DNA from: Bradyrhizobium betae
Lineage (GTDB): Bacteria > Pseudomonadota > Alphaproteobacteria > Rhizobiales > Xanthobacteraceae
Length of the DNA: 64,000 nt
Assembly (NCBI RefSeq): GCF_008932115.1
Contig: NZ_CP044543.1
Span: 1,612,001-1,676,000, forward strand
Direction of reading: 5' to 3'
In this document: positions 48,123 to 64,000 of the stretch, in pieces
Numbering within the stretch: the first letter of the stretch is position 1
Layout: every line of letters begins with the position of its first letter
Notes under the pieces: model-generated
Database searches by the model: none
The model's input: the letters and a program-made list of their open reading frames with translations, nothing else
What the model was told of the DNA's origin: nothing
Position numbers and translations under genes: made by a program

Positions 48123-48403
48123 CATTCCGCGAAGCAATGCCAGACCAGGACATGAGAGGCAAGGTTTTGACGATTGCGACAATCATCAAATCAGGCGGCC
48201 CATGTAAGCGCATCGAAATGTGTAGGAAACATGATGGCGTCATGCATACTCGCATGCTATCCGCCTGCGAGGATGCTCTGACGATAGCGCCACATGTGCT
48301 ACACGTCATAGATCGTATATTCGGCGCGAATGCTTAGTCTCGAGGCACTGCTCGCGTAGGACACCTGCGAAGAACAAGACACCCACGAAGAAAAAGATCG
48401 GCT

Positions 48404-49519: not shown

Positions 49520-49586
49520 CGCGGCCCAAATATTGCTGCTTAGAGGCGTTACACGCGCTGTCTGCAAGAGAAGGAAGGACTAACCG

Positions 49587-50750
49587 TTGTCCAGCGGCCT
49601 GAAAGTTCTGCATGTCGCCGAAACGGTCAGGGGCGGCATCGCCACCTACCTCAACGAGCTGCATCCGCATCAGAGCGCGAGCTTCGGGCGTGGAAACGTC
49701 AATTATGTCGTTCCGTCCGACCATCGCGACGATCTGGTGAACATCGAGGATGATGCCGTCACCACGTTTCCGCGCGACGGCCGCAACGCGATCGGCCTGT
49801 TTCGCATGCTGTTTGCGACCATGCGCGCGGTCCGGCAGTTGCGGCCTGACATCATCCACCTTCACTCGTCGTTCGCCGGGCTCGTGGTGCGCCCGGTGCT
49901 CTGGCTCACCTATCGGCGTTCTCGCATCGTCTATTGCCCGCACGGATGGGCGTTCGGCCGCGAGACCGGCCGCCTCAGCCGCGAAGTCACCAAGTTCACC
50001 GAGCTCGTGCTGTCGAAACTCACGCATCGCATCGTCTGCATCTCCGAAAGCGAGCTGACCGATGCAAAACAGGTCGGAATCGCGGACAATCGCCTGGTTC
50101 TTGTGCACAATGGCATTTCCAAGCAGCGCCCGGCGCTCGACGACAAGGGCGCGGCGCCGTGGCGGTCTGACAAGATCAAGGTCCTCTTCATCGGCCGGCT
50201 CGACCGCCAGAAGGGCTATGATCTGCTGATCGAGGCTGCGCGCGCGCTCGGCGACAAGCTCGACGTGCGCCTGATCGGCGCCTCCGTCGTCAGCAAATTC
50301 CGCAGAAGCGACCTGCCGGCCAACATAACGTTTCTGGGCTGGATGAACCGCAACCAGATCGAGGCCGAGCTCGAACAGGCCGACATGGTCGCCATTCCTT
50401 CGCGCTGGGAGGCATTCGGCCTCGTCGCGATCGAGGCGATGCGCGCGGCCAAGCCGATCATCGCCTTCCGCATCGGCGCGCTGCCGGAAATCGTCGAAGA
50501 TAATGCGACCGGCGTGCTGTGCGACGAAGTCTCAGCCGAAAAACTGGTTGAAGGTTTTCAGCGCGCAACCAGGCTTGACCTGCCCGCGGTCGGCCGGGCC
50601 GGATATGAGCGCTTTACCCGCCTCTACGACATCGAGCAGACCCACCGCACCCTGAGCCAGGTCTATTCCGACGTGCTGCATGTTCGGATCAGCGAATCCG
50701 GGCAGCGGACGAAGCTGCAATCCGACCTTCCGAACAATCTGCGATCGTAG
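49587..50750 (+). CDS. Glycosyltransferase, GT4 family
   Basis: A 387-residue GT-B enzyme: LKVLHVAETVRGGIATYLNEL at the N-terminus, IIHLHSSFAG, YCPHGWAF with a probable acceptor-site His, LFIGRLDRQKGYDLLIEAARAL at the start of the second domain, and the EX7E-type SRWEAFGLVAIEAM with FRIGALPEIVEDNATG. It resembles the exopolysaccharide GT4 enzymes that use UDP-sugars. The start is TTG with AAGGAAGGA about ten bases upstream. It is probably in one unit with the preceding glycosyltransferase gene. Confidence 0.9.
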   Translation: MSSGLKVLHVAETVRGGIATYLNELHPHQSASFGRGNVNYVVPSDHRDDLVNIEDDAVTTFPRDGRNAIGLFRMLFATMRAVRQLRPDIIHLHSSFAGLVVRPVLWLTYRRSRIVYCPHGWAFGRETGRLSREVTKFTELVLSKLTHRIVCISESELTDAKQVGIADNRLVLVHNGISKQRPALDDKGAAPWRSDKIKVLFIGRLDRQKGYDLLIEAARALGDKLDVRLIGASVVSKFRRSDLPANITFLGWMNRNQIEAELEQADMVAIPSRWEAFGLVAIEAMRAAKPIIAFRIGALPEIVEDNATGVLCDEVSAEKLVEGFQRATRLDLPAVGRAGYERFTRLYDIEQTHRTLSQVYSDVLHVRISESGQRTKLQSDLPNNLRS

Positions 50751-50761
50751 CGGCCGGCCGA

Positions 50762-50905
50762 TCAGGCCAGCCGGCGAGCCTCGTCTGGCGCGAATTCGGC
50801 GTCGATGACGCGCTTGTCCGAGAACGACCACGCGATCGCGAACATGACGACCATCGCGCAGACGAGAAAACCGGCCGCGAACAGCAGTGATCCGGTGTGC
50901 AACAT
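50762..50905 (-). CDS. Small single-span membrane protein (47 aa)
   Basis: The frame begins ATG at 50905 with GGGAAGG about ten bases upstream. It encodes MLHTGSLLFAAGF, a hydrophobic stretch through residue 27, then WSFSDKRVIDAEF and an acidic/basic tail. One transmembrane helix (about residues 5-27) with a short cytoplasmic tail is predicted. It lies tail to tail with the GT4 gene ending at 50750. I recognise no family. Small membrane proteins at polysaccharide loci can regulate export complexes, but this is speculation. Confidence 0.5.
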   Translation of the reverse strand: MLHTGSLLFAAGFLVCAMVVMFAIAWSFSDKRVIDAEFAPDEARRLA

Positions 50906-51449
50906 CGTCTTGGCCTTCCCTTTTTGCTTGACCGACCACTAGCCGGATCAGGATTAGGAAGACCTTACGGACACCAGCGCGACGCCAGCTTCCAAATCTA
51001 AGCGTTAATGGAGGCGAAATCCCGTCGCAGAAAATTGGTCCGATGCCCCGGCGAGAACATCCGCTCGAGCGCCATGCCTGCCGCAGGATGACGAAAACAC
51101 AACGCAGGGTCGGCCGGAATCGAATCCGATACTGGAAGTTTACGGCGACCTCATCTCGTGACGATGCCGTCGCATGTCAGGTTCAACGCCGCACACCGCT
51201 CACAAGTTCAAACGCGGCCCCAATCGTGACATCGATCTGACACGTGTATGTCCAGTTCGCGAACTGCTTATTAAAGAGGACGTGCCGCACAAGAATTAAA
51301 CAGCGATTTGCGCGTGTATCTCGGTTCACAAGTTGCAATAAGGTCACAGCCATAAGTGCTTTACCATAAAGTCGAAGAGGTAGCAGTGACTCCGCAGCAC
51401 GATGATTGGTACGGTGATTCAGATTTTAGATGAGTACGAGGGAATGCTG
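50906..51449. other. Long intergenic region upstream of the Wza-like gene
   Basis: No gene is convincing. The part from 51270 is markedly AT-richer than the neighbouring genes, as expected for a promoter and leader. A perfect 14-bp palindrome, CAGTTCGCGAACTG (51253-51266), lies about 185 bp before the Wza-like start and is a candidate operator for the export operon. Confidence 0.45.
51253..51266. promoter_or_regulatory. Palindrome upstream of the polysaccharide export operon
   Basis: CAGTTCGCGAACTG is perfectly symmetric. It is the only clean dyad of that length that I noticed in the 544-bp region and probably binds a dimeric regulator. Confidence 0.45.
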
Positions 51450-52673
51450 GTGGCTAACGCCGAACGTTTTAATTTTGATTTCGGGATTAGCCGAATCCTG
51501 GCGGTGGCTGCGATCAGCATCTCCCTGGCGGGTTGCGGAGGCTTCATTCCGTTAGACGCTCCGGATGCCGTTTCCACGCAAACAAATGCTGCGCTCGTCA
51601 CCGAGCCGACCGCGCCGCTCGCCTACGCCCTGATGCCGGTCAATCCGGCGATCCTGCAGGCGACCAACGCTTTCACGGACTCCTCCGGAATGGTGTTCTC
51701 CCGCCTCCCGGGCGGCAACTACCGCGACGTCACGATCGGCATCGGCGACATCGTCACCGTGACCGTGTACGAAGCGCAGGCAGGCGGCCTGTTCATTCCA
51801 CGCGAAGCGGGCGTCAGGCCCGGCAACTTCGTGGACATTCCGCGGCAGCAGGTCGACCAGTCCGGCAACATCAACATTCCGTACGCCGGATCAATCAAGG
51901 TCGCGGGACTGACGCCGCGCGCCGTGTCGAACATCATTCGCGAGCGCCTCAAGGACCGCGCCATCGACCCGCAGGCGGTCGTGAGCGTGGCCGAACAGCG
52001 CGGCAACCAGATCAGCGTGCTCGGCGAGGTCAATTCGCCGCTCCGCTTCCCGGTCGACCCGGGTGGAATTCGTCTGATGGGCGCGATCGCGCGCGCCGGC
52101 GGACCGAAATACCCGTCCTACGAAAGCACGATCACGATCAAGCGCGAGGGCCGGACCTACAGCGAGACGATGTCCTCGGTGGTGCACAACCCCAACGAGG
52201 ACGCGCTGCTCGCGCCGGGTGACGTCGTCTTCCTGACCCGCATTCCGCGCGTCTACATGGTGTTCGGCTCGACGCCGTCGCCGGGATCGATCGGCGGCAC
52301 CAACAACCGTCGGTTCTCGTTCGAGAACGACAACATGTCGCTGGCTGAAGCCATCGCGAAGGCAGGCGGGCTCGACGGCAATCGCGCGGACTCGAAGTCG
52401 ATCTACGTCTACCGTTTCGAGCCCAAGCCGCTGCTGGAGAAGATCGGAGTCGCCGTATCCCAGTTCCCGACGAAGACGGTCCCCGCCGTCTACAAGTTCG
52501 ACATGAGCAAGCCCGATGGCTGGTTCCAGGCGGATACGTTCAGGATGCGCGATCACGACGTGATTTCGGTGGCGGAATCGCCGTCGACCGAATTCATCAA
52601 GCTCATGAACCCGCTGAATGCGGCAACCACCAATGCGGACAACATCAGCACGATCATCGTGAACTCCAAATAG
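51450..52673 (+). CDS. Polysaccharide export outer-membrane lipoprotein (Wza/OPX family)
   Basis: A 407-residue protein: lipoprotein signal with the lipobox ISLAGC near residue 28, a polysaccharide export (PES) domain with IGIGDIVTVTVYEA, VDIPRQQVDQSGNINIPYAGSIKVAGLT (cited in part) and two SLBB-like domains (VSVLGEVNSPLRFPV-type, and MVFGSTPSPGS). It forms the channel through which the polymer leaves the cell. The GTG at 51450 has GAGGGA seven bases upstream; ATG 51444 is too near that site. It is the first gene of the operon with the GH protein, two glycosyltransferases and the flippase. No partner Wzc-like co-polymerase is in the window. Confidence 0.93.
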   Translation: MANAERFNFDFGISRILAVAAISISLAGCGGFIPLDAPDAVSTQTNAALVTEPTAPLAYALMPVNPAILQATNAFTDSSGMVFSRLPGGNYRDVTIGIGDIVTVTVYEAQAGGLFIPREAGVRPGNFVDIPRQQVDQSGNINIPYAGSIKVAGLTPRAVSNIIRERLKDRAIDPQAVVSVAEQRGNQISVLGEVNSPLRFPVDPGGIRLMGAIARAGGPKYPSYESTITIKREGRTYSETMSSVVHNPNEDALLAPGDVVFLTRIPRVYMVFGSTPSPGSIGGTNNRRFSFENDNMSLAEAIAKAGGLDGNRADSKSIYVYRFEPKPLLEKIGVAVSQFPTKTVPAVYKFDMSKPDGWFQADTFRMRDHDVISVAESPSTEFIKLMNPLNAATTNADNISTIIVNSK

Positions 52674-52682
52674 CCCAACTCG

Positions 52683-52704
52683 GCGCGCTCAATGACGAGC
52701 GCGC
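52683..52704 (+). other. Hairpin between the Wza-like and GH-A-like genes
   Basis: GCGCGCTC and GAGCGCGC form an 8-bp stem around AATGAC, 10 bp after the Wza-like stop. No T-run follows, so it may stabilise the upstream mRNA or reduce read-through inside the operon. Confidence 0.45.
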
Positions 52705-52788
52705 AAACAAGGCGGCGGCGTCACCCCATTGGGGCCACAGAAGAGGAGTAGCCCCGTCGGCTTGACGCGAGCAGGAGTTGAGACGAGC

Positions 52789-54129
52789 GTGACTGAGCAA
52801 AAGAGGAAACGCGCACTGCGTCGTTTCCGGATGCTGATTTGCGGGCTCTGCGCCGCGGCCGCATTCTCGTATCCTGCGAACGCGCAGAATGCGAAGCCCC
52901 TCGATCAACGCTTCCTGCTGGGCGTCGGCACTCATCAGGGCCTGGGCGGCATCACCAGCGCCCGCGGCTACGTGCCTGCGACGGCCATCAAGCAGATGAG
53001 GGAGCTCGGGGTCACCTCGTTCCGCGACGACTTCCCCTGGTCGGATTTCGAGCTGCCCGGCAAGCGGCTCGGCTTCAATGCCCTCAACGGCCGCCTCGAG
53101 ACCCAGATCAGGACAAGCGGCGGAATCCCGCTGCTCATTCTCGGGACCGGCCATCACCTCGTTCCGAACTCCGATCCACCGACGACCGACGAAGCGCGCC
53201 AGAGATTCGTCACCTATGCCGCGGCGGCCGCGCAGGCGGTCGCCTTGCGCCAGCCCATCTTCGAATTGTGGAACGAGTACAACCTCCGAGCACGCGCGGA
53301 GCCACAATTCACCGTCGAAAATTACGTTGCGCTCGCCCGTCTGGTGCAGCCCGCGGTCAAGCAGGCGGTACCATCCGCGCCCTTCGTGGTTGGTGCGCTC
53401 GGCGACGATCCGGGCTGGAAGTTTACCGACGCCCTGCTCAAGACCGATCTTCTCGGCATCGCGGACGGCATGTCGATCCACATCTACAACCATTGCTCTG
53501 CTCCCGCAGGACGCACCGCAACGGAAGCGATCGAGCGGCTGGAGACGTTTCATCAGCGCGTCGCGCAGGCGACCGGCAATCCCGGCTATCCGATCTATCT
53601 GACCGAAACGGGCTGGCCGACTCCGAGCGCGAAGTGCGGCGTCAGCGAGCAACTCGCCGCCGACAACATGGCGCAGATCATCCTCTGGGCATCGACCGCG
53701 GGTCCCTGGCTCAAAGGGATATGGCTCTACGAGCTGAAGGACAGCGGAACCAAGCCCGGCGAACTCGAGGACAATTTCGGCATTTATCATTTCGACAATT
53801 CGCCGAAGCCCGCCGTGTGTTCCATTCGCGAGAGCTGGGCCTTCATCCGCTCCAGCCTGAAGGCGACGCGAAGCACGCCAGCCCCTGGCGTCGTGCAGAT
53901 CCGCAGCGACAGCGGATCAGAAACGAAACTGGCGCTTTGGTCGGACACTCCCTCGAAGCGCTTCGAGGTGCGATTAAAAAATGCGGAACCGAATGCCGAG
54001 ATCAGCTATGTATGTCGGCAAGCGTCAGGCCCTGCCGCTGGCGCCTGGACGGCGCTATCGACGACGCCGCTGCTGGTCAGCGTCAAGGGCACGGCCGTGC
54101 CGGATTTCGAGATTCGGCCATCGAACTGA
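52789..54129 (+). CDS. Secreted clan GH-A glycoside hydrolase-like protein (PslG-like)
   Basis: A 446-residue protein: a signal peptide (basic start, cleavage near ANAQ, about residue 37), then a TIM barrel with LGVGTHQGLGG and VTSFRDDFPWSDFE at the first strands, the acid/base Glu at about 163 in FELWNEYN and the nucleophile Glu at about 273 in LTETGWPT. A C-terminal beta domain follows. Length, signal and motifs resemble PslG, the endoglycosidase encoded in the Pseudomonas psl exopolysaccharide cluster, so it probably trims or releases the polymer in the periplasm. A GTG start at 52789 is chosen; TTG 52762 is possible. Confidence 0.82.
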   Translation: MTEQKRKRALRRFRMLICGLCAAAAFSYPANAQNAKPLDQRFLLGVGTHQGLGGITSARGYVPATAIKQMRELGVTSFRDDFPWSDFELPGKRLGFNALNGRLETQIRTSGGIPLLILGTGHHLVPNSDPPTTDEARQRFVTYAAAAAQAVALRQPIFELWNEYNLRARAEPQFTVENYVALARLVQPAVKQAVPSAPFVVGALGDDPGWKFTDALLKTDLLGIADGMSIHIYNHCSAPAGRTATEAIERLETFHQRVAQATGNPGYPIYLTETGWPTPSAKCGVSEQLAADNMAQIILWASTAGPWLKGIWLYELKDSGTKPGELEDNFGIYHFDNSPKPAVCSIRESWAFIRSSLKATRSTPAPGVVQIRSDSGSETKLALWSDTPSKRFEVRLKNAEPNAEISYVCRQASGPAAGAWTALSTTPLLVSVKGTAVPDFEIRPSN

Positions 54130-54162
54130 CGCTGCGGCGCACTGCTGAATCCGGGGCTATCC

Positions 54163-55359
54163 TTGAAGATACTGATCGCTAACTCGCTCTATCCGCCCGA
54201 AATCATTGGCGGCGCCGAGGTGTCTGTGTCGCTGCTCGCACAGGCACTCGCCCAGCGCGGCCACCAGGTGTCGGTGGTATGTCTTCAAAACAAGCAGGAG
54301 CGCACCATCGACGAGCTCAAGGGCGTGCGCGTATACCGTGTGCCGATGGACAACGACTACTGGCCGTTCGGCACCGACAGGAAGCCCTCTTCGATCCAGC
54401 GCCTGAAATGGCATCTCAAGGACACCTGGAATCGCAAGTCCGCGGCGCGTTTCGCCGAAATTCTCGACATCGAGAAGCCGGATGTCGTCCACACGAACAA
54501 CCTCACGGGATTTTCCGTCTCGCTGTGGTCGGAGGCCAAGCGGCGCAACATCAGGATCGTGCACACGCTGCGCGACTATTCCCTGCTCTGCAAACGCTCG
54601 ACGCTATTCCGAGGGGATGCGACGTGCGCGCAGCGCTGCACGGCCTGCGTGGCCATGACGTCGCCCTATTTGCTGGCCTCACGCATGGTCGATGCCGTGG
54701 TGTCGAACAGCCAGTTCGTGCTCGACCAGCACACCAAGCTGAAATATTTCCCCCGCACCGACAGCCGCGTCATCTTCAACATCGCGGACCCAAGCTCGGT
54801 GGCGCCCTCGCCAGCTTCGAGCTCGGATGACCTGATATTCGGGTTCATCGGCCGGCTCGAGGCCGAAAAAGGTATAGAAGTAGTTCTAAAGGCCACCGAA
54901 CAGCTTCCCGGCGAGGGCTGGCAACTGAAAATTGCCGGAAAGGGTCTCGAGGACTACGTGCAGGGGCTAAAAAGCCGCAGCAGAGGGAACGTCGAATGGC
55001 TTGGCTTTGCCAAGTCAGCCGAATTCTATGCCAGCATCGACGTCTGCCTGGTGAGTTCGGTCTGGCCGGAGCCGCTGCCGCGAACGTTGATCGAAAGCAT
55101 CAACGCAGGCCGGGCGACTATTTGTTCGACAGCGGGAGGGATTCCCGAGATCGCGGGGTTTTCCAACATGATTGGGTCCTACGAACCCAACGATCACAAG
55201 CGACTGGGAGAATTGATGCTGAAGGCGATAGAGGAGAGATCACACTGGAAAATCGCCCGGCCTCCGCAGCCGGGATTTGCCGAGAGGTTTTCAGCGGATT
55301 CCGTGACAGGACAATATTTGGACGTCTATTTGAATAACAATAGAACCAACCGGCAATAG
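54163..55359 (+). CDS. Glycosyltransferase, GT4 family, with Cys cluster
   Basis: A 398-residue GT-B protein: KILIANSLYPPEIIGGAEVS at the N-terminus, HTNNLTGFSVSLW, HTLRDYSLLCKR followed by three more Cys in CAQRCTAC, IFGFIGRLEAEKGIEVVLKA at the start of domain 2, and SSVWPEPLPRTLIESINAG with GIPEIAG. The four Cys may bind a metal. It is closely related to the next gene, probably by duplication. A TTG start with a weak site is used. It adds one sugar of the repeat unit; the donor is unknown. Confidence 0.9.
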   Translation: MKILIANSLYPPEIIGGAEVSVSLLAQALAQRGHQVSVVCLQNKQERTIDELKGVRVYRVPMDNDYWPFGTDRKPSSIQRLKWHLKDTWNRKSAARFAEILDIEKPDVVHTNNLTGFSVSLWSEAKRRNIRIVHTLRDYSLLCKRSTLFRGDATCAQRCTACVAMTSPYLLASRMVDAVVSNSQFVLDQHTKLKYFPRTDSRVIFNIADPSSVAPSPASSSDDLIFGFIGRLEAEKGIEVVLKATEQLPGEGWQLKIAGKGLEDYVQGLKSRSRGNVEWLGFAKSAEFYASIDVCLVSSVWPEPLPRTLIESINAGRATICSTAGGIPEIAGFSNMIGSYEPNDHKRLGELMLKAIEERSHWKIARPPQPGFAERFSADSVTGQYLDVYLNNNRTNRQ

Positions 55360-55417
55360 GCCGAAACGGAGATATCAGCAAAAGCCATTTGGCAGGATAG
55401 CTGGACAGACCTTTTCG

Positions 55418-56629
55418 ATGAAAATTCTTATCACGTCATCCCTCTATCCCACACCGCTGGCTCCGAAGGTGGTCGGGGGCGCGGAAACGTTCGTCCGCCG
55501 CCTCGCCGAGACCCTGGTCGGGCAGAGCGACAGCGTGGAAGTGATACGTGCTGCGTCCGCATCGAACCAGCAGATGGAGACCTGCAACGGCGTCGACGTG
55601 TATTCGGCCCCCGTGCACAACATCTACTTCCCTTTCGCCAAGCAGCACAGCGCGCCCGTGCGCGGCATCTGGCACGCGATCGAGGACTGGCAAACGATGT
55701 CGGAGCTCGTTGCCAACAGGATCAAGGCCTTCAAGCCGGACATCCTGCACTCGAACAATCTCTCCGGACTGACGACGGCCGTGTGGCGAACCGCGGCAGA
55801 ACTGGGCATTCCCGTCCTGCACACGCTTCACGACTATTACCTCACCTGCCCCCGCTGCTCGCGGTTTTCGGACGGACATGCCTGCGAGGCGAGCTGCATG
55901 AGCTGCCAGCTCCTGACCTTTCGCCGTCGCGGGGCGACGCGGCACCTGGACGCCGTCGTCGGCGTCAGCCAGCGCATCCTCGACATCCACACCCAGCTCG
56001 GCCTCTTCACGCAGACGCCGCTGAAGATCGTCATTCGAAACGCTTCGACGGCCGACGTCGGCAGCGAACCGACGGCGATGACCAACGGCACCGTCACGTT
56101 CGGATTCATCGGGCGACTGACCGAAGAGAAAGGCATCTACAATCTGGTTCGCGCCATTGCGACGATTCCGCCTGACCGGATCCGGCTCGTGATCGCGGGC
56201 CATGCGTCCGAGAGCGAGCGCATGCACATCAAGGAACTCGCCCCGAATGCACGGATCGAATTTCTTGGCTTCGTGCAACCGAAGCAGTTTTACGAACAGG
56301 TGAACGTCGTGGTTGTACCCTCGATCTGGGAAGATCCAAGCCCCCTCGTCGTCGCCGACGCGCAGGCGGCCTGCAAGCCCCTGCTCGGCACGCCCTTCGG
56401 TGGCATCCAGGAGTCGATCGAGCCCGGCGTGACCGGCTGGTTGACGTCTCCCGATCCCGCCTCGATCGCCAAGAGTATTTCGGCGATTCTGGATGCGCCC
56501 CAGCAGGTCGTGGAGATGAGCGGACGATTGAAGTCCGGCATCAACAAATGGGCCTTTGACGACGTCGTCGCCGGCTATCGCAACGTCTTCGAGCAGCTGA
56601 CGCGCGGCCGCGGCATGCCTCGCACATAG
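55418..56629 (+). CDS. Glycosyltransferase, GT4 family, paralogue of the preceding gene
   Basis: A 403-residue GT-B protein with the same features as its neighbour: KILITSSLYPTPLAPKVVGG, HSNNLSGLTTAVW, HTLHDYYLTCPRCSRF followed by CEASCMSC, FGFIGRLTEEKGIYNLVRAI, and PSIWEDPSPLVVADAQAA with GGIQESIEPGVTGW. The acceptor-loop Cys pattern is kept. The two genes probably add successive sugars. The start is ATG with a weak upstream site, 58 bp after the preceding stop. Confidence 0.9.
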   Translation: MKILITSSLYPTPLAPKVVGGAETFVRRLAETLVGQSDSVEVIRAASASNQQMETCNGVDVYSAPVHNIYFPFAKQHSAPVRGIWHAIEDWQTMSELVANRIKAFKPDILHSNNLSGLTTAVWRTAAELGIPVLHTLHDYYLTCPRCSRFSDGHACEASCMSCQLLTFRRRGATRHLDAVVGVSQRILDIHTQLGLFTQTPLKIVIRNASTADVGSEPTAMTNGTVTFGFIGRLTEEKGIYNLVRAIATIPPDRIRLVIAGHASESERMHIKELAPNARIEFLGFVQPKQFYEQVNVVVVPSIWEDPSPLVVADAQAACKPLLGTPFGGIQESIEPGVTGWLTSPDPASIAKSISAILDAPQQVVEMSGRLKSGINKWAFDDVVAGYRNVFEQLTRGRGMPRT

Positions 56630-56644
56630 CGGAGGCCGACGCAG

Positions 56645-56704
56645 ATGTCGCCGACGCCCCTCAATCATCCCGCCATGCCCTCTCTCACGCGTCGTCAGAC
56701 ATGA
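56645..56704 (+). CDS. Possible 19-residue leader ORF coupled to the flippase
   Basis: An ATG at 56645 has a strong GGAGG nine bases upstream. Its frame (MSPTPLNHPAMPSLTRRQT) ends in TGA that overlaps the flippase ATG (ATGA, 56701-56704). The flippase itself has no ribosome site of its own, so coupled translation through this leader would explain its expression. Confidence 0.5.
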   Translation: MSPTPLNHPAMPSLTRRQT

Positions 56705-58092
56705 TCAGCCTGCTCGCATTCGGCAGCTACATCTACCAGAGTGCGTCCGCAATCATCCTGATCTTTGCCGTCAGCCATATCCTCTCGCCGGCCCAATACA
56801 CCTCGTTTTCGCTGGCGCTGGCGACCAGCCAGCTGTTTTGCGTCTTCGTGTTCGAATGGCTGCAACTGGCCGGCGTACGCTTCCTCGCCGCTGCTTCCGG
56901 GGCGGAGGCCGCGCGTCTGCGCTTCTCGCTGTTCACGGCGGGACTGCTCAGCGCGCTGGTTCTGTTGCTCGTCGGCGGCGTGGCGGGACTGCTGGGCACG
57001 CTCGAGACCAGCGTCGTCGCCCTCGCGCTGGCGATGGCCGTGTTGCAAGGCGCCACCGACCTGTATTTCATGATCGTCCGGGTATCCAATCGGCTGGGGA
57101 CCGCATCCGCCCTCCTGATCCTGCGCGCCAGCGTGCTTCTGGCCGCCGCCGTCGCAGCTGCTCTGCTCCATGGCACGGCGGTAGCAGCCCTGTGCGGCAT
57201 CGCCGCGGGCTATGGCGCGGTGCTTCTCATGAGCCTGGTCGTGCACCGCACCTCGTTCCAGCGCGCGTCGCGACATGCCATGCTGACCGATTGGGGGCAT
57301 TTCTGCCGATACGGCATCATGGCCGCGGCCGCTTCGGTCATTCATCTCTCCGTACCTGTCACGCTGCGCCTGATCGTGATCGCAACGCTCGGACGGACGT
57401 CGACGGGAGCGGCCGGCTTCTCGATGGCCATCGACCTCTTACAGCGCCCGTTCTCCGTTCTGGTGGCCGCCATTCACACCGTCTGCTATCCCAATGTGGT
57501 CGTCCAGTTCGAGCGCAATGTCGACGGCGAAGTGCGCCGGGCGACCGCCCGCATGCTCGAGTTCATCCTGTGTGCGACGATCGTGATGCTGGGCGGACTG
57601 ATCGGCCTTCTCCCCGATGCGGCGCATCTGTTCGTCCCGGCCGATCTACTGGTCGATTTCCTCAACGCAGCGCCGGTCGCCGCGATCTTCTACTTCCTCC
57701 ACACTCACCTTCAGGCCACGCTTGCGGTGGTCCCGCATCTGACCAAATCGGCCGCGCGGCTGGTGGTCGTCGCGGCATGCCAGTTGCTGCTCGTGTCGGC
57801 GGCATCCTCGATCGGAGCGCTGCTGCACATATCGGTCGCCGGACAGATCGCGAGCGCGGCATTGGCTACCGCACTCATCATTCTCTTCGCCAGCGGCCCG
57901 CTGATCCGATTCCGGGCCGCACCGCGGGCACCGCTCATCGTGGAAGCAACCGTTGCGGCCGCCGCGATCGCCATGCTCGCGGCAGCTCCGTCCGATTCCC
58001 TGCTCTGGCTCGCGGGCAAGGTCGCCTTTGCCGGCCTTGCCGTCGTCCTGGTGACGTGGCGAGGCGATCTGCTGGCCTCGGCGCGCGGCTAG
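56701..58092 (+). CDS. Wzx-type polysaccharide flippase (MOP superfamily)
   Basis: A 463-residue membrane protein with about 12-14 hydrophobic helices and very little polar sequence, as in oligosaccharide flippases of the polysaccharide transport family. The N-terminus GSYIYQSASAIILIFAVSHILSPAQYT (cited in part) with FLAAASGAEAARLRF in the first loop is typical. It moves the lipid-linked repeat unit from the cytoplasmic to the periplasmic side, where a polymerase (not in the window) and the Wza-like channel take over. It is the last gene of the plus-strand operon, 2 bp from the end of the convergent glycosyltransferase gene. Confidence 0.83.
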   Translation: MISLLAFGSYIYQSASAIILIFAVSHILSPAQYTSFSLALATSQLFCVFVFEWLQLAGVRFLAAASGAEAARLRFSLFTAGLLSALVLLLVGGVAGLLGTLETSVVALALAMAVLQGATDLYFMIVRVSNRLGTASALLILRASVLLAAAVAAALLHGTAVAALCGIAAGYGAVLLMSLVVHRTSFQRASRHAMLTDWGHFCRYGIMAAAASVIHLSVPVTLRLIVIATLGRTSTGAAGFSMAIDLLQRPFSVLVAAIHTVCYPNVVVQFERNVDGEVRRATARMLEFILCATIVMLGGLIGLLPDAAHLFVPADLLVDFLNAAPVAAIFYFLHTHLQATLAVVPHLTKSAARLVVVAACQLLLVSAASSIGALLHISVAGQIASAALATALIILFASGPLIRFRAAPRAPLIVEATVAAAAIAMLAAAPSDSLLWLAGKVAFAGLAVVLVTWRGDLLASARG

Positions 58093-58094
58093 AA

Positions 58095-59318
58095 TCAGGC
58101 CTTCACCGGATGAGCGAGCGGATTGCCGCTGGCATCGCCGGTCAAACCGTAGATCTTGAGGGTCGCGTCGACCATGGGGCCGACACCGAAATATTGCTGG
58201 GCACGCGCCAGGGCTTTGCGCGACAGCACGGCACGCATCGCGGGATCGGCCACTTTCTCGAGCGCTCCCACGAGCGCATCAACGTCCTCGAACGGCACGA
58301 TGAAGCCGGTCTGCCCCTGGATGATCTGGTCTGAGGCGCCTCCCGCCGGAGTCCGGACCGGCACCAGTCCGGTCGCCATGGCTTCGGCCACACCGAGCGG
58401 GAATCCCTCGAAGCGGCTCGGCAGCGCGAACACGTCTGCGGCCCAGAGGATTTCGCGGACGTCTCCCATGAAGCCGAGGAATTTGAACGTCTCGTTGTCT
58501 TTGTCGCCGGCGAAGGCAAACGACTTGATTTCCTTCTCGCGCTCGGCACCGCCGCTGCCGACGAAATAGCACTTGATGTCGATCGGCGACGGGCTGGCGC
58601 TGTCGCGGATCTTGCGCGCCGCCTTGATGAGGAGGTCGTGTCCCTTCACCCAGGCAAGACGAGCCGCCAGCAAGCACATGAACTCACCCTCGGCGACGCC
58701 GAATTTCGCGCGCGCATCGCGGCGCTCGACATCGGACGGCGGGCGGAAATGCACCGTATCGACGCCGCCATAGACCTTCGCGATCCGGTTCTTGCCGAAC
58801 AGCACGTAGCGGCGGAGATGCCGAAGCGATTCCTCCGACATCAGGATGAGGGTGTGCGGAAAGAAGAGGTTGAAGAACAGGACCTGGGCTGCGCTGAAGG
58901 TCGACTGCGGCGCATTCTGCACCTTCTCGATATTTCCGAGCACCGAGGGATGATAGGTCGCGACGCAGCGCGCGCCGGTAAGCAGCGAGAGCAGCCTGCC
59001 CCACATCAGCATGCCGAGCCCATGGACGTTGATCACGGTGATGTTGTTCTTCCGGATCACCTTCACCAGCTGCATGAAGATCGACAGCGAGGGCAGCTTG
59101 CGAAGCCCGGGAACGACGTGCCATTCCTTGACGGCCGCGGCCAGCTTCTGGCGCTTGTATTCGGATTTCTCGTCCGAGCGCACGGCGCCGGAGACCAGAT
59201 GGATCTGTACGCCGCGAGCATGCAGTCCCGTAGCCAGGGTCTCGCAATAGGATGCAATCCCGTCATTGCAATTCACGACCTCAACCAGAAACATCACATT
59301 CGGGGCGGGATCTTGCAT
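58095..59318 (-). CDS. Glycosyltransferase, GT4 family
   Basis: A 407-residue GT-B protein. NVMFLVEVVNCNDGIASYCETLATG at the start (cited in part), INVHGLGMLMWGR, CVATYHPSVLGNIEKVQ, the second domain opening LLAARLAWVKGHDLLIKAARKI and the EX7E-type SRFEGFPLGVAEAMATG with VRTPAGGASDQIIQGQTGF are all present. It transfers a sugar in polysaccharide synthesis. The ATG at 59318 is chosen (AAGG eight bases upstream); the frame is open to a TTG at 59357. It is convergent with the flippase gene and lies beyond the plus-strand operon. Confidence 0.88.
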   Translation of the reverse strand: MQDPAPNVMFLVEVVNCNDGIASYCETLATGLHARGVQIHLVSGAVRSDEKSEYKRQKLAAAVKEWHVVPGLRKLPSLSIFMQLVKVIRKNNITVINVHGLGMLMWGRLLSLLTGARCVATYHPSVLGNIEKVQNAPQSTFSAAQVLFFNLFFPHTLILMSEESLRHLRRYVLFGKNRIAKVYGGVDTVHFRPPSDVERRDARAKFGVAEGEFMCLLAARLAWVKGHDLLIKAARKIRDSASPSPIDIKCYFVGSGGAEREKEIKSFAFAGDKDNETFKFLGFMGDVREILWAADVFALPSRFEGFPLGVAEAMATGLVPVRTPAGGASDQIIQGQTGFIVPFEDVDALVGALEKVADPAMRAVLSRKALARAQQYFGVGPMVDATLKIYGLTGDASGNPLAHPVKA

Positions 59319-59477
59319 GAGAATGGCCTTACTCCGTTCAAGCGACGACACGTCCAATCGTCAGTGCTTAGCGGCAAATTTCATGCCGCACCAGCGGTTT
59401 GCCCGCGACAGCATTGCTGCGCGTAACATGCTGACGTTGCGGATCTGCGACACTCCCTCCCGGCACCAGAAATGGCT

Positions 59478-60572
59478 TCAGAAGCCTCGTTTCTGGAGTT
59501 CGGCGGCTTCCGCCGGCGTGAGCTTGCCCCCGGCGAAACGCGACACGAGGTAGAGCGCGACTTTCGGACGATTCAGGTCGTACATCAGGCCGAAGCGGTT
59601 TTCCGGAGGCTTCTTGCCGGGTTCGTCGACGATCTCGTAGATGCTGACGCTGTCGATCGCGACCTCCTTCTGGTCGCGGATCGCCGTCAACATGTTGTTC
59701 AAATTCTGTAGACAACGCTCGGTTGCAGGGTCCCCGGGCGCGTTGCCATAATCGGGCTTGTAGATCTCGCCACAATTGACCTCGTTGAAGAGGACGTGCC
59801 GGCGATAGGACGCGAGCTTCTTGAAAAGATCGAAGCGCGGGTTCCAGCCGTTCCAGGCCTGGTGGGGATTTTGCCCGAGTACCTCATAGTAGTGATACGA
59901 GATCAGGTCGTAGCGAACGCCGCGTTGCTCCATGAAATCGAGAAAGCCGAACATGGTGGACGTCGTGTTCAGGATCTTTTTCAGATGCAGCCCGCTCTCC
60001 TGGTTGATCCGGTCGATCGCGTCGGACGCTCCGCGCAGGACCGCCGCCCAGTCCTCCATGGCCGGCATCTCGAATTCCGCGGCCGTCATTCCGCTGCCAA
60101 AGAGGCGCTTGCCGTTCTTGTCGAGCGCAACGAGGTTGATCTCGTTCTCCAATTCCCATTGGTCGATATCGTTCTTGAATTGCCGCACGAACTCATAGGT
60201 CCGATTGTATCCCTGCTGATAAAGAGCCTCCCGATCACCGGCAGGATACCGTCCGCTATCGGTGCGATCGCCCCAACGGAAGGGAAAGCCGAAGACCGCC
60301 TGAAGCTTTATTCCGTAAATCTTCGCGAGCCGGACGGCGTTCTCCAGCATCGGACCTTCTGTCTGCTCCTTATCTTTCGACAGATTGACGCCGATCCTGA
60401 ACAGCGTGAAGCCGCGTTCCTTCATTACGCGAAAGGCGGGCTCGGGATCTCTTCGCATCGCCGATGGACTGCTCACGCCCCATTCGAGCGCATTGGCAGG
60501 CAACGACGTTGACGCACTCATCGCTGCGACAAAAAGGACCACACTGATCTGCCTGAGATGGTTCCATCGCAT
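59478..60572 (-). CDS. Secreted clan GH-A glycoside hydrolase-like protein
   Basis: A 364-residue protein: signal peptide (cleavage near NALE, about residue 29), TIM-barrel start with LEWGVSSPSAMRR and FTLFRIGVNLSK, the acid/base Glu at about 144 in WELENEINL and the nucleophile Glu at about 264 in VLFNEVNCGE. The fold is that of GH-A (GH39/GH53-like families), though the family cannot be fixed. The start at 60572 has AGGAG ten bases upstream. It is the second of three such proteins in the locus and probably acts on the polysaccharide in the periplasm or outside. Confidence 0.78.
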   Translation of the reverse strand: MRWNHLRQISVVLFVAAMSASTSLPANALEWGVSSPSAMRRDPEPAFRVMKERGFTLFRIGVNLSKDKEQTEGPMLENAVRLAKIYGIKLQAVFGFPFRWGDRTDSGRYPAGDREALYQQGYNRTYEFVRQFKNDIDQWELENEINLVALDKNGKRLFGSGMTAAEFEMPAMEDWAAVLRGASDAIDRINQESGLHLKKILNTTSTMFGFLDFMEQRGVRYDLISYHYYEVLGQNPHQAWNGWNPRFDLFKKLASYRRHVLFNEVNCGEIYKPDYGNAPGDPATERCLQNLNNMLTAIRDQKEVAIDSVSIYEIVDEPGKKPPENRFGLMYDLNRPKVALYLVSRFAGGKLTPAEAAELQKRGF

Positions 60573-61043
60573 CCGTTGCCGACTCCTCGTTGCTTCGGAA
60601 TAGTTCGAAAGACTCCGGTCGCGTGCTCCACGCCGAACAGATGTCACATTCGAAATTCGATCCGTGTCTGGCAGTCGTTCGCTTCTAAGCAATTCGATCT
60701 GCTCTGGCCATAGGCTTAATGGCCTTTAACGCAATCGAACCAACGCTGCCTGCACGGCAAGCAAATGCGTTTCGATTAGGCAGTGGCACAACATCGATCG
60801 AACATCGTCGTTGCATCGCCATGCCGACGTCACGCTGACAGCACATTAGTGTGGTGATTCAGAGATCAATCAGTCCAAGCAGATTCGTTGACGGGTCGGC
60901 ATCGTGCAGGACGCTTCGGCGAGAATTCTCCGGGGTGCCTCGATTTTTACTGATCTCCCCAACTCGAAAAAGAGAGATTGGCCGATACGACAGACACAAG
61001 CGGCAACTAAATCTCGCACTCCAGAAAAGGCTTTGGAATACCG
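60573..61043. other. Divergent intergenic region between two GH-A-like genes
   Basis: The 471-bp region holds promoters for the minus-strand GH-A-like gene and for the long repeat protein. I see no clean palindrome longer than 12 bp, no hairpin with a T-run and no coding frame with a ribosome site. Confidence 0.5.
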
Positions 61044-64000
61044 ATGACTACCGCATCACCTGATCAGACGATTCTGTCGGCGAGCACCTTTGTCAGTTCC
61101 ATCGGCGTCAATACCCACGCTGGCTATTCGTGGGGCGGGTACAACAACCTCGCCCTCGTGGAGGACGATCTCAAATATCTCGGCGTCACGAAGCTGCGCG
61201 ACGGGCTCGCTTCGAGCCCGTCGGCACAACCGATCCTCGATGGTCTCGCGAAAGACGGCTACACATTCGACTTCGTGGTTCAGTCGAATGTTCCAGCCGG
61301 CGGCGCGTCCGCGCTTCAGGCCTATCTGGATGCGGTCAAGGCGTTCGAGACCAGCCATCCCGGCAGCGTGATCGCGCTCGAGGGCCTGAACGAGGTCAAC
61401 GTCTACGCATTCAGTTACGGCGGAACCCTGACCGTCGAGGCGGCGGCGCAGTTCCAGGTCGCCTACTACAACGCCATCAAGGCCGATGCCACGCTCAGCA
61501 AGATTTCGGTCTACAACTTGTCGTTGGGCTACAACGACTCTACCGACTACGCAAAGCTCGGAGACCTGTCCGGCGCAACCGACTACGCCAACTCCCACGC
61601 CTATGTCAGCACGAGCCTGACCCCCGCCGCCGCTCTCCAGGCCCTGCTCGGCAATGCGACGTCGGTCACCGGCACCGATCCGGTCGTGATCACCGAGACC
61701 GGCTACACCACCAAGAGCGACACGCCTTATATTGGCGCCAACGAGAACGTGCAGGCGAAGTCGATCCTGAACACGCTGGTCGATGCCTACAAGGACGGCG
61801 TCAGCACGACCTATCTCTATCAGTTGCTCGACGCCTCGGCGGACAACGATCCGTCCAACCCTGAATCGCACTACGGCTTGTTCAACAGCGACGGAACCCC
61901 GAAGCTCGCGGCAACCGCGATCCACAATCTGACGACGATCCTGGCCGACGACGGCAAGGGAGGCCACACGCCGACCGCCTCGCTGGACTATGCGCTCGAC
62001 GGCCTGCCGGCGAGCGGGAACAGCATGGTGCTCGGCAAGAGCAACGGCGCCTACGAGCTGGTGGTCTGGGCTGAACCCAAGATCTGGAACGACGCTACCG
62101 ACACCGAGATCTCGAATCCGACGACGTCGGTCACAGTGAATCTCGGCAGCGTCCACCATCTGATCAGCGTTTACGACCCGTTAAAGGGCACGTCGCCGAT
62201 CGCTACCTATACCGACGTCAGCCAGATCGTGATTCCGGTCTCGGACCATCCACTGATCATCGAAATTGATGCTCCAGCGGGCGGAGGTGCAGGGGCGCCG
62301 GCCGTGACCGATGTCAGCGGAACCGCCGCCGACATCGTCTCGCAGATGTCCGAGCTGAACACCTCGAGCGCGCTCAAGACGATCACGCTCACCGATACCC
62401 ATGTCCTTCCGGTCGCGTCCGAAGCGACCATGAGCTACATGATCTCGCACTACTCGAACGCGCTGGCGGCCATCCAGGGCGGCTATCAGTTCTCCGTCAC
62501 AAACTCCACCTCTGCCTGGAGCGTGACCAAGGTCTACGACTCCACTGCCAAGCTGCTCTCGACCAGCACGTCCAACTTCACGAACGGCGTCATCACCAGC
62601 AAGGTCACCGTCAACAGCGACGGATCGTCCGATAACCTGGCCTACAGCGGCGGCAAGCTCGTCAGCGACGTCGTCATTTCGGCTGACGGCAACAAGGATA
62701 CCAAGACCTACGATACGAGCGGCAACCTGATCGCGGACATGGCCCAGAACAAGGATGGCTCGTCCTCGAACACGCTGTATTCGGCTGGCGTCAAGACCAA
62801 GGCCTACATCACCAACGCCGACGGCAGCCACGACAACTATTACTACAACATCACCGGTCAATCCTACACCAGCGAGCACGATCATCTCGATGCGAACAAC
62901 AAACTGCTGTCGGTGAGCCGCACGCATGCCGACGGCACCATGGCCTACAGCCAGATCCTCAACGCCGACGGCAGCAAGGTCACGACCCTGTACGACTCGA
63001 CGGGCCACAAGACCTCGGTCGTGACCGTCACCTCGACGGACACCACGACCAACTTCTACACCACCGCAGGCGTGCTGAAGCAGACGGTCGTGCAGACCAC
63101 CAGCGGCAACGTGACGACGACGAACTACAACGGCTCTCTGCTCGCGTCGGTCTACGTGGTCAACGCCGACGGTTCCAAGGACTCAAAGCTGTACGATTCC
63201 GAGGGCGTCATCACGAGCGACTTCGTCCAGAACAAAGACGGCTCGTCCTCGAACACGGTCTATACCGCGGGCGTCAAGACCAAGGCCTATGTCACCAACG
63301 CCGACGGCAGCCACGACAATTACTACTACAATATCACCGGCCAGTCCTACACCACCGAGCACGATCATCTCGATGCGAGCAACAAGCTGCTGTCGGTGAG
63401 CCGCACGCATGCCGACGGCACCATGGCCTACAGCCAGGTCCTCAACAGCGACGGCAGCAAGGTCACGACCCAGTACGACTCGACGGGCCACAAGATCTCG
63501 GTTGTGACCGCCACGTCGACGGCCACCACGACGAATTTCTACACCACCGCCGGCGCGCTGAAGCAGACGGTCGTGCAGACGACCTCCGGCGACACCACCA
63601 CGACGAACTACAACGGTGCGCTGCTGGTGTCGGTCTACGTGGTGAATGCGGACGGTTCGAAGCAGTCGAAGCTGTACGACTCCAACGGCGTCATCGCGAA
63701 CGACCTGGCCCAGAACAAGGACGGCTCGTCCTCCAACACGCTCTATACCGCCGGCGTCAAGATGAAGGTCTACGTCACCAACGCCGATGGCAGCCGCGAC
63801 AACACCTACTACAACATCACCGGCCAGTCCTACACCACCGAGCACGACCACATCGACCCCAGCGGAAAGCTGCTGCTGGTCAGCCGCACCCATGCCGACG
63901 GCACGATGGCCTCCAGCCAGGTGCTGAACAGCGACGGCAGCAAGGTCACGACCCAGTACGACTCCACGGGTCACAAGATCTCGGTCGTTACCGTGACGTC
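61044..64000 (+). CDS. Long protein with N-terminal GH-A-like domain and tandem repeats; C-terminus outside the window
   Basis: At least 985 residues are present and the frame stays open to the right edge. The first 290 residues form a TIM-barrel domain with FVSSIGVNTHAGYSWGG, acid/base Glu about 117 in LEGLNEVNV and nucleophile Glu about 218 in VITETGYTT; a beta domain follows to about 415. From about 570 the protein consists of repeats rich in Asn, Asp, Gly, Ser, Thr and Tyr (NADGS, LYDS, NITGQSYT). There is no N-terminal signal peptide, so export by a type I system through a C-terminal signal is likely but not seen. The start has a GGA eight bases upstream. Confidence 0.83.
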   Translation, partial: MTTASPDQTILSASTFVSSIGVNTHAGYSWGGYNNLALVEDDLKYLGVTKLRDGLASSPSAQPILDGLAKDGYTFDFVVQSNVPAGGASALQAYLDAVKAFETSHPGSVIALEGLNEVNVYAFSYGGTLTVEAAAQFQVAYYNAIKADATLSKISVYNLSLGYNDSTDYAKLGDLSGATDYANSHAYVSTSLTPAAALQALLGNATSVTGTDPVVITETGYTTKSDTPYIGANENVQAKSILNTLVDAYKDGVSTTYLYQLLDASADNDPSNPESHYGLFNSDGTPKLAATAIHNLTTILADDGKGGHTPTASLDYALDGLPASGNSMVLGKSNGAYELVVWAEPKIWNDATDTEISNPTTSVTVNLGSVHHLISVYDPLKGTSPIATYTDVSQIVIPVSDHPLIIEIDAPAGGGAGAPAVTDVSGTAADIVSQMSELNTSSALKTITLTDTHVLPVASEATMSYMISHYSNALAAIQGGYQFSVTNSTSAWSVTKVYDSTAKLLSTSTSNFTNGVITSKVTVNSDGSSDNLAYSGGKLVSDVVISADGNKDTKTYDTSGNLIADMAQNKDGSSSNTLYSAGVKTKAYITNADGSHDNYYYNITGQSYTSEHDHLDANNKLLSVSRTHADGTMAYSQILNADGSKVTTLYDSTGHKTSVVTVTSTDTTTNFYTTAGVLKQTVVQTTSGNVTTTNYNGSLLASVYVVNADGSKDSKLYDSEGVITSDFVQNKDGSSSNTVYTAGVKTKAYVTNADGSHDNYYYNITGQSYTTEHDHLDASNKLLSVSRTHADGTMAYSQVLNSDGSKVTTQYDSTGHKISVVTATSTATTTNFYTTAGALKQTVVQTTSGDTTTTNYNGALLVSVYVVNADGSKQSKLYDSNGVIANDLAQNKDGSSSNTLYTAGVKMKVYVTNADGSRDNTYYNITGQSYTTEHDHIDPSGKLLLVSRTHADGTMASSQVLNSDGSKVTTQYDSTGHKISVVTVT
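62745..64000 (+). repeat. Tandem 483-bp (161-residue) coding repeats
   Basis: Copies begin at 62745, 63228 and 63711, each at QNKDGSSSNT, exactly 483 bp apart; the third is cut by the window edge. The preceding 120-150 bp look like the end of a degenerate unit. Within each unit a shorter motif of about 23-25 residues containing NADGS or N/SDGS recurs. Confidence 0.9.

What the first reader, a model, noticed from the sequence alone, without database searches (positions are those of the whole stretch)
61044..64000. Giant repeat protein with its own glycoside-hydrolase head at the edge of an exopolysaccharide locus
The sequence shows a GH-A-like domain with both catalytic Glu (about 117 and 218), no signal peptide, then 161-residue tandem repeats with exactly 483-bp spacing and very high similarity. 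A hydrolase-headed repeat protein next to polysaccharide genes could anchor to, cut or organise the matrix while growing or shrinking by recombination of its repeats. I know of no described protein with this layout, but my knowledge is not a search.
Basis: partly seen in the sequence, partly recalled or inferred. Interest (0 to 1): 0.75.

Follow-up and report, generated by a model that had tools for sequence, protein, structure and literature searches.

The report
Secreted sugar-cutting enzyme on rod
Many Bradyrhizobium soil bacteria carry, inside the gene cluster for their slimy sugar coat, a gene for a probably secreted protein whose head looks like a sugar-chain-cutting enzyme and whose body is a long predicted run of repeats, so it may trim or organise that coat; this has not been tested at the bench.

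Summary
ORF 61044 runs past the window edge and ends at window-equivalent 65405 (1453 aa, 152 kDa). Its head (aa 1-410) is a predicted TIM barrel plus beta-sandwich. The best solved match is PslG, the exopolysaccharide (EPS) glycosidase of the Pseudomonas psl cluster (E 3e-16). E117 and E218 sit at barrel strands 4 and 7 and are invariant (28 of 28 rows). The repeats are 5 units of 161-162 aa, each of 7 beta-hairpins, resembling Borrelia OspA and YD/Rhs repeats. The tail has weak RTX motifs and ends F-x-[FL]-V, so the protein is best read as type I secreted. A PrtD/HlyD exporter lies 2.4 Mb away, and close to a paralogue in another strain. Relatives occur in 115 of 265 Bradyrhizobium genomes; in 49 of 49 fetched loci at least five EPS-locus genes flank it. 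Most likely it trims its own EPS outside the cell, like rhizobial Ply glycanases but built differently. Frequent growth or shrinkage is not supported: length class changed about 4 times on a 49-tip tree. New variant of a known kind.

The parts
61044..64000 (+). Whole gene as far as the window shows it; it continues to a stop at window-equivalent 65405 (G000:C1:1677405), 1453 aa
61044..61940 (+). Head: (beta/alpha)8 barrel, about aa 1-299; E117 and E218 at barrel strands 4 and 7
   Evidence: AF2 model, barrel strands 20-23, 50-53, 74-79, 109-115, 155-157, 181-189, 214-222, 255-258; Foldseek best hit PslG; invariance
61986..62273 (+). Beta-rich domain joined to the barrel (about aa 315-410), read as a beta-sandwich; PslG also has a C-terminal domain described as carbohydrate-binding
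   Evidence: PslG layout in PMC7237758 (passages)
62304..62486 (+). Small conserved alpha/beta domain (about aa 421-481), function unknown
62670..63152 (+). Repeat unit 1 (aa 543-703), 7 beta-hairpins
63153..63635 (+). Repeat unit 2 (aa 704-864)
63636..64000 (+). Repeat unit 3 (aa 865-1026), cut by the window edge; units 4, 5 and the RTX-like tail (about aa 1340-1453, ...FLFV) lie beyond it
59478..60692 (-). Divergent neighbour: GH53-like protein (24.7 bits, Pfam cut-off 24), signal peptide by eye; found at 40% identity or more in only 5 of 49 related loci
52729..54129 (+). PslG/GH39-like neighbour; homologue at 40% identity or more in 44 of 49 related loci
51402..52673 (+). Polysaccharide export protein (Poly_export + SLBB)
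48404..59357 (.). Five glycosyltransferases in this stretch: 48404-49519, 49587-50750, 54163-55359, 55418-56629 (+) and 58095-59357 (-)
45634..46950 (-). Nucleotide-sugar (UDP-glucose type) dehydrogenase
   Evidence: TIGR03026 468 bits, cut-off 190
47097..48182 (-). NDP-sugar epimerase/dehydratase-like protein, no curated cut-off reached among the 25 families shown; lspL-like by position (inferred)
   Evidence: PMC8707904 passages

Best explanation
A type I secreted exopolysaccharide-processing enzyme of Bradyrhizobium. The cell makes the protein without a signal peptide; a PrtD/HlyD/TolC-type exporter recognises the C-terminal tail and moves the chain out, tail first (general type I mechanism, recalled). 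Outside, the RTX-like tail folds, the 34-38 beta-hairpins fold into a long thin sheet or rod (about 36 nm if 76 strands stack at 0.48 nm, a recalled spacing), and the PslG-like head cleaves the strain's own EPS at or near the cell surface, setting chain length and release. Shown by computation: domain anatomy, conservation, locus linkage, presence of an exporter in the genome. Inferred: secretion through that exporter, catalysis, the substrate, and the spacer role of the rod.
For: Barrel plus beta-rich domain with PslG as best PDB match (E 3.2e-16; next hits GH30 and GH39). E117 and E218 invariant in 28 of 28 rows, spaced 101 residues against 111 for E165/E276 of PslG (residues from PMC9075953 and PMC7237758 passages). 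EGxNE and ETG motifs in 49 of 49 relatives. Purifying selection in each of four parts: dN/dS 0.09-0.27 against 5 relatives. In 49 of 49 loci at least five separate EPS-locus genes flank it. The locus resembles the USDA110 cluster blr2358-bll2384, in which blr2358 is needed for normal EPS and lspL-ugdH for its galacturonic acid (PMC8707904 passages). All 48 complete relatives end F-x-[FL]-V, and 47 of 48 have no Cys. A paralogue lies about 1 kb from a HlyD-type adaptor, with a PrtD-type ABC one further gene on (L096). A homologue from another genus ends in canonical RTX blocks (115 bits). The own genome has a PrtD exporter (733 bits) with HlyD (398 bits).
Against: No exporter at the locus itself: no PrtD-profile match between C1:1,349,276 and 1,814,337 among the candidates scored (96 of 209). 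RTX nonapeptides below the Pfam cut-off in this protein (13.6 against 23 bits); 3 of 48 relatives lack the GGx[GASN]xD-like motif I searched for. No curated GH family reached its cut-off for the head (best GH17, subthreshold). 150 of 265 Bradyrhizobium genomes lack a match, so it is not needed for EPS throughout the genus. No activity, substrate or secretion data. The spacer idea rests on a model with pTM 0.38.
Confidence: 0.6

Rival explanations
1. Matrix scaffold or lectin: the head binds EPS without cutting it, and the rod cross-links cells and matrix, comparable to CabA of Vibrio vulnificus or RapA/RapD of Rhizobium.
For: Beta-rich domain placed like the carbohydrate-binding domain of PslG; repeats make up more than half of the protein; EPS-linked type I secreted matrix proteins without an enzyme domain are described (PMC9888727, PMC9298526; abstract and passages).
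Against: Both catalytic-type Glu and residues around them are invariant in 28 of 28 rows, more than a pure binding role needs.
Confidence: 0.17
2. It acts on a foreign glycan, such as a plant wall or root polysaccharide or a competitor's capsule, rather than on the strain's own EPS.
For: Enzymes of this fold cover many substrates (GH30, GH39, GH5 and GH17 hits); some homologues carry other binding modules, e.g. CBM60 on a Roseomonas plasmid.
Against: Constant placement inside the EPS locus in 49 of 49 loci; closest fold is an EPS self-hydrolase encoded in its own EPS cluster.
Confidence: 0.15
3. The hairpin repeats close into an Rhs-like cocoon that carries a cargo.
For: Foldseek puts Rhs and teneurin YD shells first on local geometry (best E 5.5e-22).
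Against: TM-scores of about 0.1 or less and rmsd near 80 show that no shell superposes on the model, though the model's overall shape is unreliable (pTM 0.38); the only DPxG match lies inside a repeat, not at a C-terminal core (motif recalled); an RTX-like tail follows.
Confidence: 0.03
4. Adhesin-like protein whose repeat number changes often by recombination.
For: Units 1-3 are 79-86% identical at nt level, and unit 1 is closer to unit 2 of the same gene than to unit 1 of four of five relatives; one close relative has one unit fewer (1291 aa).
Against: Length classes follow the tree, 4 changes among 49 tips; 21 of 25 unit comparisons favour the same-position unit.
Confidence: 0.04

Closest known systems
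PslG, glycosidase of the Psl EPS cluster, Pseudomonas aeruginosa (structures 4zn2, 5bx9, 9g17)
   Same: Barrel fold with C-terminal beta-rich domain, two catalytic-type Glu at similar spacing, gene inside an EPS cluster
   Different: PslG has a predicted signal peptide and sits at the inner membrane and in the periplasm (passages), with no repeats and no type I tail; the locus's sequence-level PslG relative is the neighbour 52729-54129
PlyA/PlyB glycanases and Rap proteins of Rhizobium leguminosarum (PrsDE type I system)
   Same: Type I secreted EPS glycanases with a non-catalytic module, acting at the cell surface (PMC9298526, PMC5061743; abstract and passages)
   Different: [quoted passage not shown] no cadherin family among the hits shown here. 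PMC9298526 names pectate-lyase and PL6-type domains for glycanases, not a PslG-like barrel; no direct comparison was made
CabA/CabH of Vibrio vulnificus
   Same: RTX-type matrix proteins regulated together with an EPS locus, CabA with exporter CabBC (PMC9888727 passages)
   Different: Only RTX repeats are shown for them in the passages seen: no enzyme head and no hairpin rod
OspA of Borrelia and YD/Rhs/teneurin repeats
   Same: About 23-residue beta-hairpin repeats, in register with OspA in sequence (E 2.5e-9 profile, 1.4e-5 single) and alike in local fold
   Different: Far more hairpins than OspA, no Rhs core motif, different protein context; biased composition may inflate the sequence scores

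Membership tests
Clan GH-A glycoside hydrolase | (beta/alpha)8 barrel | tested here: met
   eight barrel strands
Clan GH-A glycoside hydrolase | Glu at the ends of strands 4 and 7 | tested here: met
   E117 just after strand 109-115 (4th), E218 in 214-222 (7th); the clan rule itself is recalled; side-chain distance could not be measured (no coordinates given)
GH39 (PslG-like) | match to a curated GH39 model | tested here: not met
   no GH39 hit at E<=1 for the window protein in Pfam or NCBIfam, nor in Pfam for 28 members
GH39 (PslG-like) | fold closest to PslG/GH39 | tested here: met
   the top 3 Foldseek hits in the PDB are PslG; TM by query length 0.53-0.55
GH39 (PslG-like) | endoglycosidase activity | not testable with these tools
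   -
RTX / type I secreted protein | no N-terminal signal peptide, C-terminal signal with hydrophobic end | tested here: met
   first part by eye only; F-x-[FL]-V end in 48 of 48 complete relatives
RTX / type I secreted protein | GGxGxD nonapeptide array | tested here: inconclusive
   13.6 bits against 23 here; 115 bits in homologue L094
RTX / type I secreted protein | exporter gene nearby | tested here: not met
   exporter 2.4 Mb away; close by only for paralogue L096
Rap/Ply proteins | Ra/CHDL domain | tested here: not met
   no cadherin-like Pfam hit for the window protein nor among the 25 of 30 families shown for 21 members
Rhs/YD proteins | RHS repeat model over cut-off and C-terminal core motif | tested here: not met
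   RHS_repeat best E 0.059, in 1 of 21 members; no core-like motif at the end
OspA-type single-layer sheet | open sheet of hairpins exposed on both faces | tested here: inconclusive
   76 strands in series but pTM 0.38; one face 41% V/I/L/F/M/W, the other 19%

The most novel reading that the evidence does not exclude
The rod is a built-in ruler. The RTX-like end stays with the cell surface or capsule, and a clade-fixed number of hairpins (about 36 nm when extended) holds the EPS-cutting head at a set distance, so that chains are cut at a defined height and the capsule gets a defined thickness. I know of no enzyme that uses such a hairpin rod as a spacer (recalled, not searched beyond the ten paper searches).
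Probability: 0.12. Interest if true: 0.8.

Novelty: new variant of a known kind. Interest (0 to 1): 0.5.

Why it matters
Why EPS gene clusters hold a hydrolase gene is called elusive in print (PMC9075953, abstract passage). Here one EPS locus carries two hydrolase-like neighbours and a probably secreted PslG-like protein on a hairpin rod, in a genus of legume symbionts in which EPS mutants nodulate or compete less well (PMC8707904 passages). It offers a clean knock-out and domain-deletion test of extracellular EPS trimming, and an unusually long natural array of OspA/YD-like hairpins.

Tried and rejected
Pfam ChuX/HutX (E 1.2e-8, over its cut-off) and NCBIfam HutX, sigma-factor and Pfam S1 and McpB_HAMP hits on the repeats were rejected: no stretch passing on its own for ChuX, HutX and S1, a Thr/Ser/Asp-rich repeat, and different families for different members. 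GH17 (9 of 28 members) and Glyco_hydro_cc (2 of 28) hits are below the cut-offs where these are shown, and the GH17 stretch covers the strand 7-8 region only; taken as clan-level similarity. Phage origin of the head: no match in 50,697 phage records by tblastn; a fold match to an uncultured phage protein exists and was not followed further. Literature for this exact layout: 10 searches in the open PMC library showed no such description in the listings; listings are capped and subscription papers are not held. The pdb_via library was not available. The first positional comparison of repeat units missed unit 1 in the relatives because its pattern did not match there; it was repeated with fixed boundaries, which brought out the exception for unit 1. 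Relatives not used: the head alignment took 28 rows chosen from the loci at hand, not all; dN/dS used 5 of the 8 complete close relatives; L024 is cut by its contig end and was left out of length counts.
Full report
Observation. The open frame from ATG 61044 continues through the window edge. In-window repeats are spaced exactly 483 nt, with 91% and 84% identity to the first copy. The window is G000:C1:1612001-1676000 of a 2-contig genome. The next 24 kb were fetched: the frame ends at window-equivalent 65405, giving 1453 aa, 152 kDa, pI 4.8, with no Cys.

Organism. Relatives found in named genomes are Bradyrhizobium in 48 of 49 loci; one record is titled Frankia sp. RB7. In the unnamed set the genomes with a match are all of the own genus (9 of 41). 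So I take the window as Bradyrhizobium; this is an inference.

Head. AlphaFold2 with 28 sequences gives mean pLDDT 86.7 and pTM 0.83: eight barrel strands with helices between, then a beta-rich domain (about aa 315-410) and a small alpha/beta domain (about 421-481). Foldseek against the PDB ranks three PslG entries first (E 3.2e-16 to 1.6e-15, 16-18% identity), followed by GH30 and GH39 enzymes. By sequence alone the head reaches no curated family cut-off; GH17 is the best hit of the head alone, subthreshold, and its profile finds pollen allergen CJP38 (E 2.8e-5; GH17-type, recalled) and a GH17 enzyme (E 0.0013) among solved structures. It matches no GH39 model, so I call it a clan GH-A protein that looks like PslG, not a GH39 member. 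E117 and E218, with E113, N116, H185, Y187 and D263, are invariant in 28 of 28 rows, and the motifs EGxNE and ETG occur in 49 of 49 relatives. The neighbour 52729-54129 aligns to PslG by sequence (E 3.4e-4; better to 5jvk, 5.9e-14), and the head aligns to that neighbour over the ETG motif (24% identity over 154 columns).

Repeats. Five units start at aa 543, 704, 865, 1027 and 1189. The model of aa 398-1453 (mean pLDDT 83, pTM 0.38) is nearly all beta; 76 strands follow one another from about aa 482 to 1355, 14 per unit, i.e. seven hairpins of about 23 aa. A profile of the region finds OspA (E 2.5e-9; single sequence 1.4e-5, in register with the hairpins of an engineered OspA); biased composition may inflate this. 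Foldseek finds Rhs and teneurin YD shells on local geometry (best E 5.5e-22) but with TM of about 0.1 or less and rmsd near 80, and OspA with TM 0.35-0.42 by target length and rmsd 15-23. The safe statement is hairpin repeats of the OspA/YD kind; the overall shape is unresolved.

Repeat dynamics. Among complete close relatives (L020-L023, L025-L028; L024 is cut by its contig end) 7 of 8 have 1452-1453 aa and L023 has 1291. Over 48 complete relatives the lengths form classes near 1000, 1120, 1303 and 1452 (counted from one fixed place per locus, so a few residues off). On a tree of the heads (48 relatives and the window protein) the classes need 4 changes, the least possible being 3. Comparing the five units with those of five equally long relatives, the same-position unit is best in 21 of 25 cases, tied in 2 and second in 2; the four concern unit 1. 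Unit 1 of the window gene is 86% identical to its own unit 2 but 82-83% to unit 1 of four relatives (90% for the fifth, L020), so some exchange between units 1 and 2 has happened. The four parts tested are under purifying selection (dN/dS 0.09-0.27, five pairs).

Tail and secretion. Weak RTX-like motifs (Pfam 13.6 bits, cut-off 23) and a terminal FLFV. All 48 complete relatives end F-x-[FL]-V; 45 of 48 have a GGx[GASN]xD-like motif in the last 130 residues. In another genus of the order (G134, L094) a similar head and repeats are followed by canonical RTX blocks (115 bits). In G011 (L096) a 1210-aa paralogue lies about 1 kb from a HlyD-type adaptor (350 bits, cut-off 209), which is followed by an unidentified gene and a PrtD-type ABC (659 bits, cut-off 510). 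On a Rhizobium plasmid a homologue of the head alone, with a signal sequence by eye, lies near a PrtD-type ABC (730 bits), a gene annotated as HlyD and sugar genes. The own genome has one PrtD match over the cut-off (733 bits; 96 of 209 candidates scored), with HlyD (398 bits), 2.4 Mb from the gene; 12.5 kb upstream of it ends a 2951-aa protein with weak tail similarity (32%, E 4e-4). So the secretion route is well supported by analogy, not shown.

Locus. By Pfam, the flanking genes include an SLBB export protein, a Wzx-type (Polysacc_synt) and a Wzy_C protein, a Wzz-type protein, a sugar transferase, four acyltransferases of family 3 and five glycosyltransferases; by NCBIfam a nucleotide-sugar dehydrogenase and an epimerase-like protein. 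I searched 19 locus genes against 49 loci: each locus carries at least five at 35% identity or more in separate places; the glycosyltransferase 55418 and the PslG-like 52729 are in 44 of 49 at 40% or more; the divergent GH53-like gene in only 5 of 49; three of the 19 (BTLCP, Wzc-like, sugar transferase) in none, probably because they lie beyond the fetched flanks. In USDA110 the cluster blr2358-bll2384 with lspL-ugdH serves EPS synthesis (PMC8707904, passages); equating the two clusters is my inference from gene content. Within the genus 115 of 265 genomes, the own one included, have a match, a few of them distant; a query of three repeat units matched 4 of 199 genomes across the order, the own one included.

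Mechanism. Rhizobium leguminosarum PlyA/PlyB are type I secreted glycanases that cleave EPS at the cell surface, with a C-terminal Ra/CHDL domain (PMC9298526 abstract and passages; PMC5061743 passages). The window protein fits the same job with other parts: PslG-like head, hairpin rod, RTX-like tail. Catalysis, substrate and localisation are inferred. Confidence 0.6 for this account; alternatives are a non-cutting scaffold (0.17) or a foreign substrate (0.15).

Novelty. The parts are known; the combination and its fixed place in the EPS locus do not appear in the listings of ten searches of an open library. I rate it a new variant of a known kind, interest 0.5.

Noticed in passing
L078:3343-12198 (G000:C1:4033343-4042198): 2951-aa protein with cadherin-like and Ig-like hits and a subthreshold C-type lectin hit, 12.5 kb from the only exporter over the PrtD cut-off; its tail weakly resembles the tail of the finding (32%).
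   Followed up: partly
window 59478-60692 (-): Divergent GH53-like gene with signal peptide by eye, present at 40% identity or more in only 5 of 49 related loci; gained recently or lost often.
   Followed up: partly
L095:7884-10016: Shorter paralogue: similar head joined to bacterial Ig-like domains and an RTX-like tail, without the hairpin units.
   Followed up: partly
L079:8007-9527; L080:7998-9404: Roseomonas plasmids carry the head with other C-terminal parts (CBM60 in L079); in L080 it lies near a sugar transferase and a glycosyltransferase.
   Followed up: no
L045: A record titled Frankia sp. RB7 carries this locus and falls inside the Bradyrhizobium tree: probably a mislabelled or contaminated assembly.
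   Followed up: no
G014:C445:73276 and 130280: Two similar copies of the head on one contig in opposite orientation.
   Followed up: no
window 62670-64000: Pfam ChuX/HutX and several unrelated models score on these repeats: a likely source of false annotation in databases.
   Followed up: partly
BFVD A0A6J5RG31: A predicted structure from an uncultured tailed phage matches the head with a better E-value than PslG does in its own library (1e-25, 22% identity); no sequence match in the phage records. A possible phage EPS depolymerase relative.
   Followed up: partly
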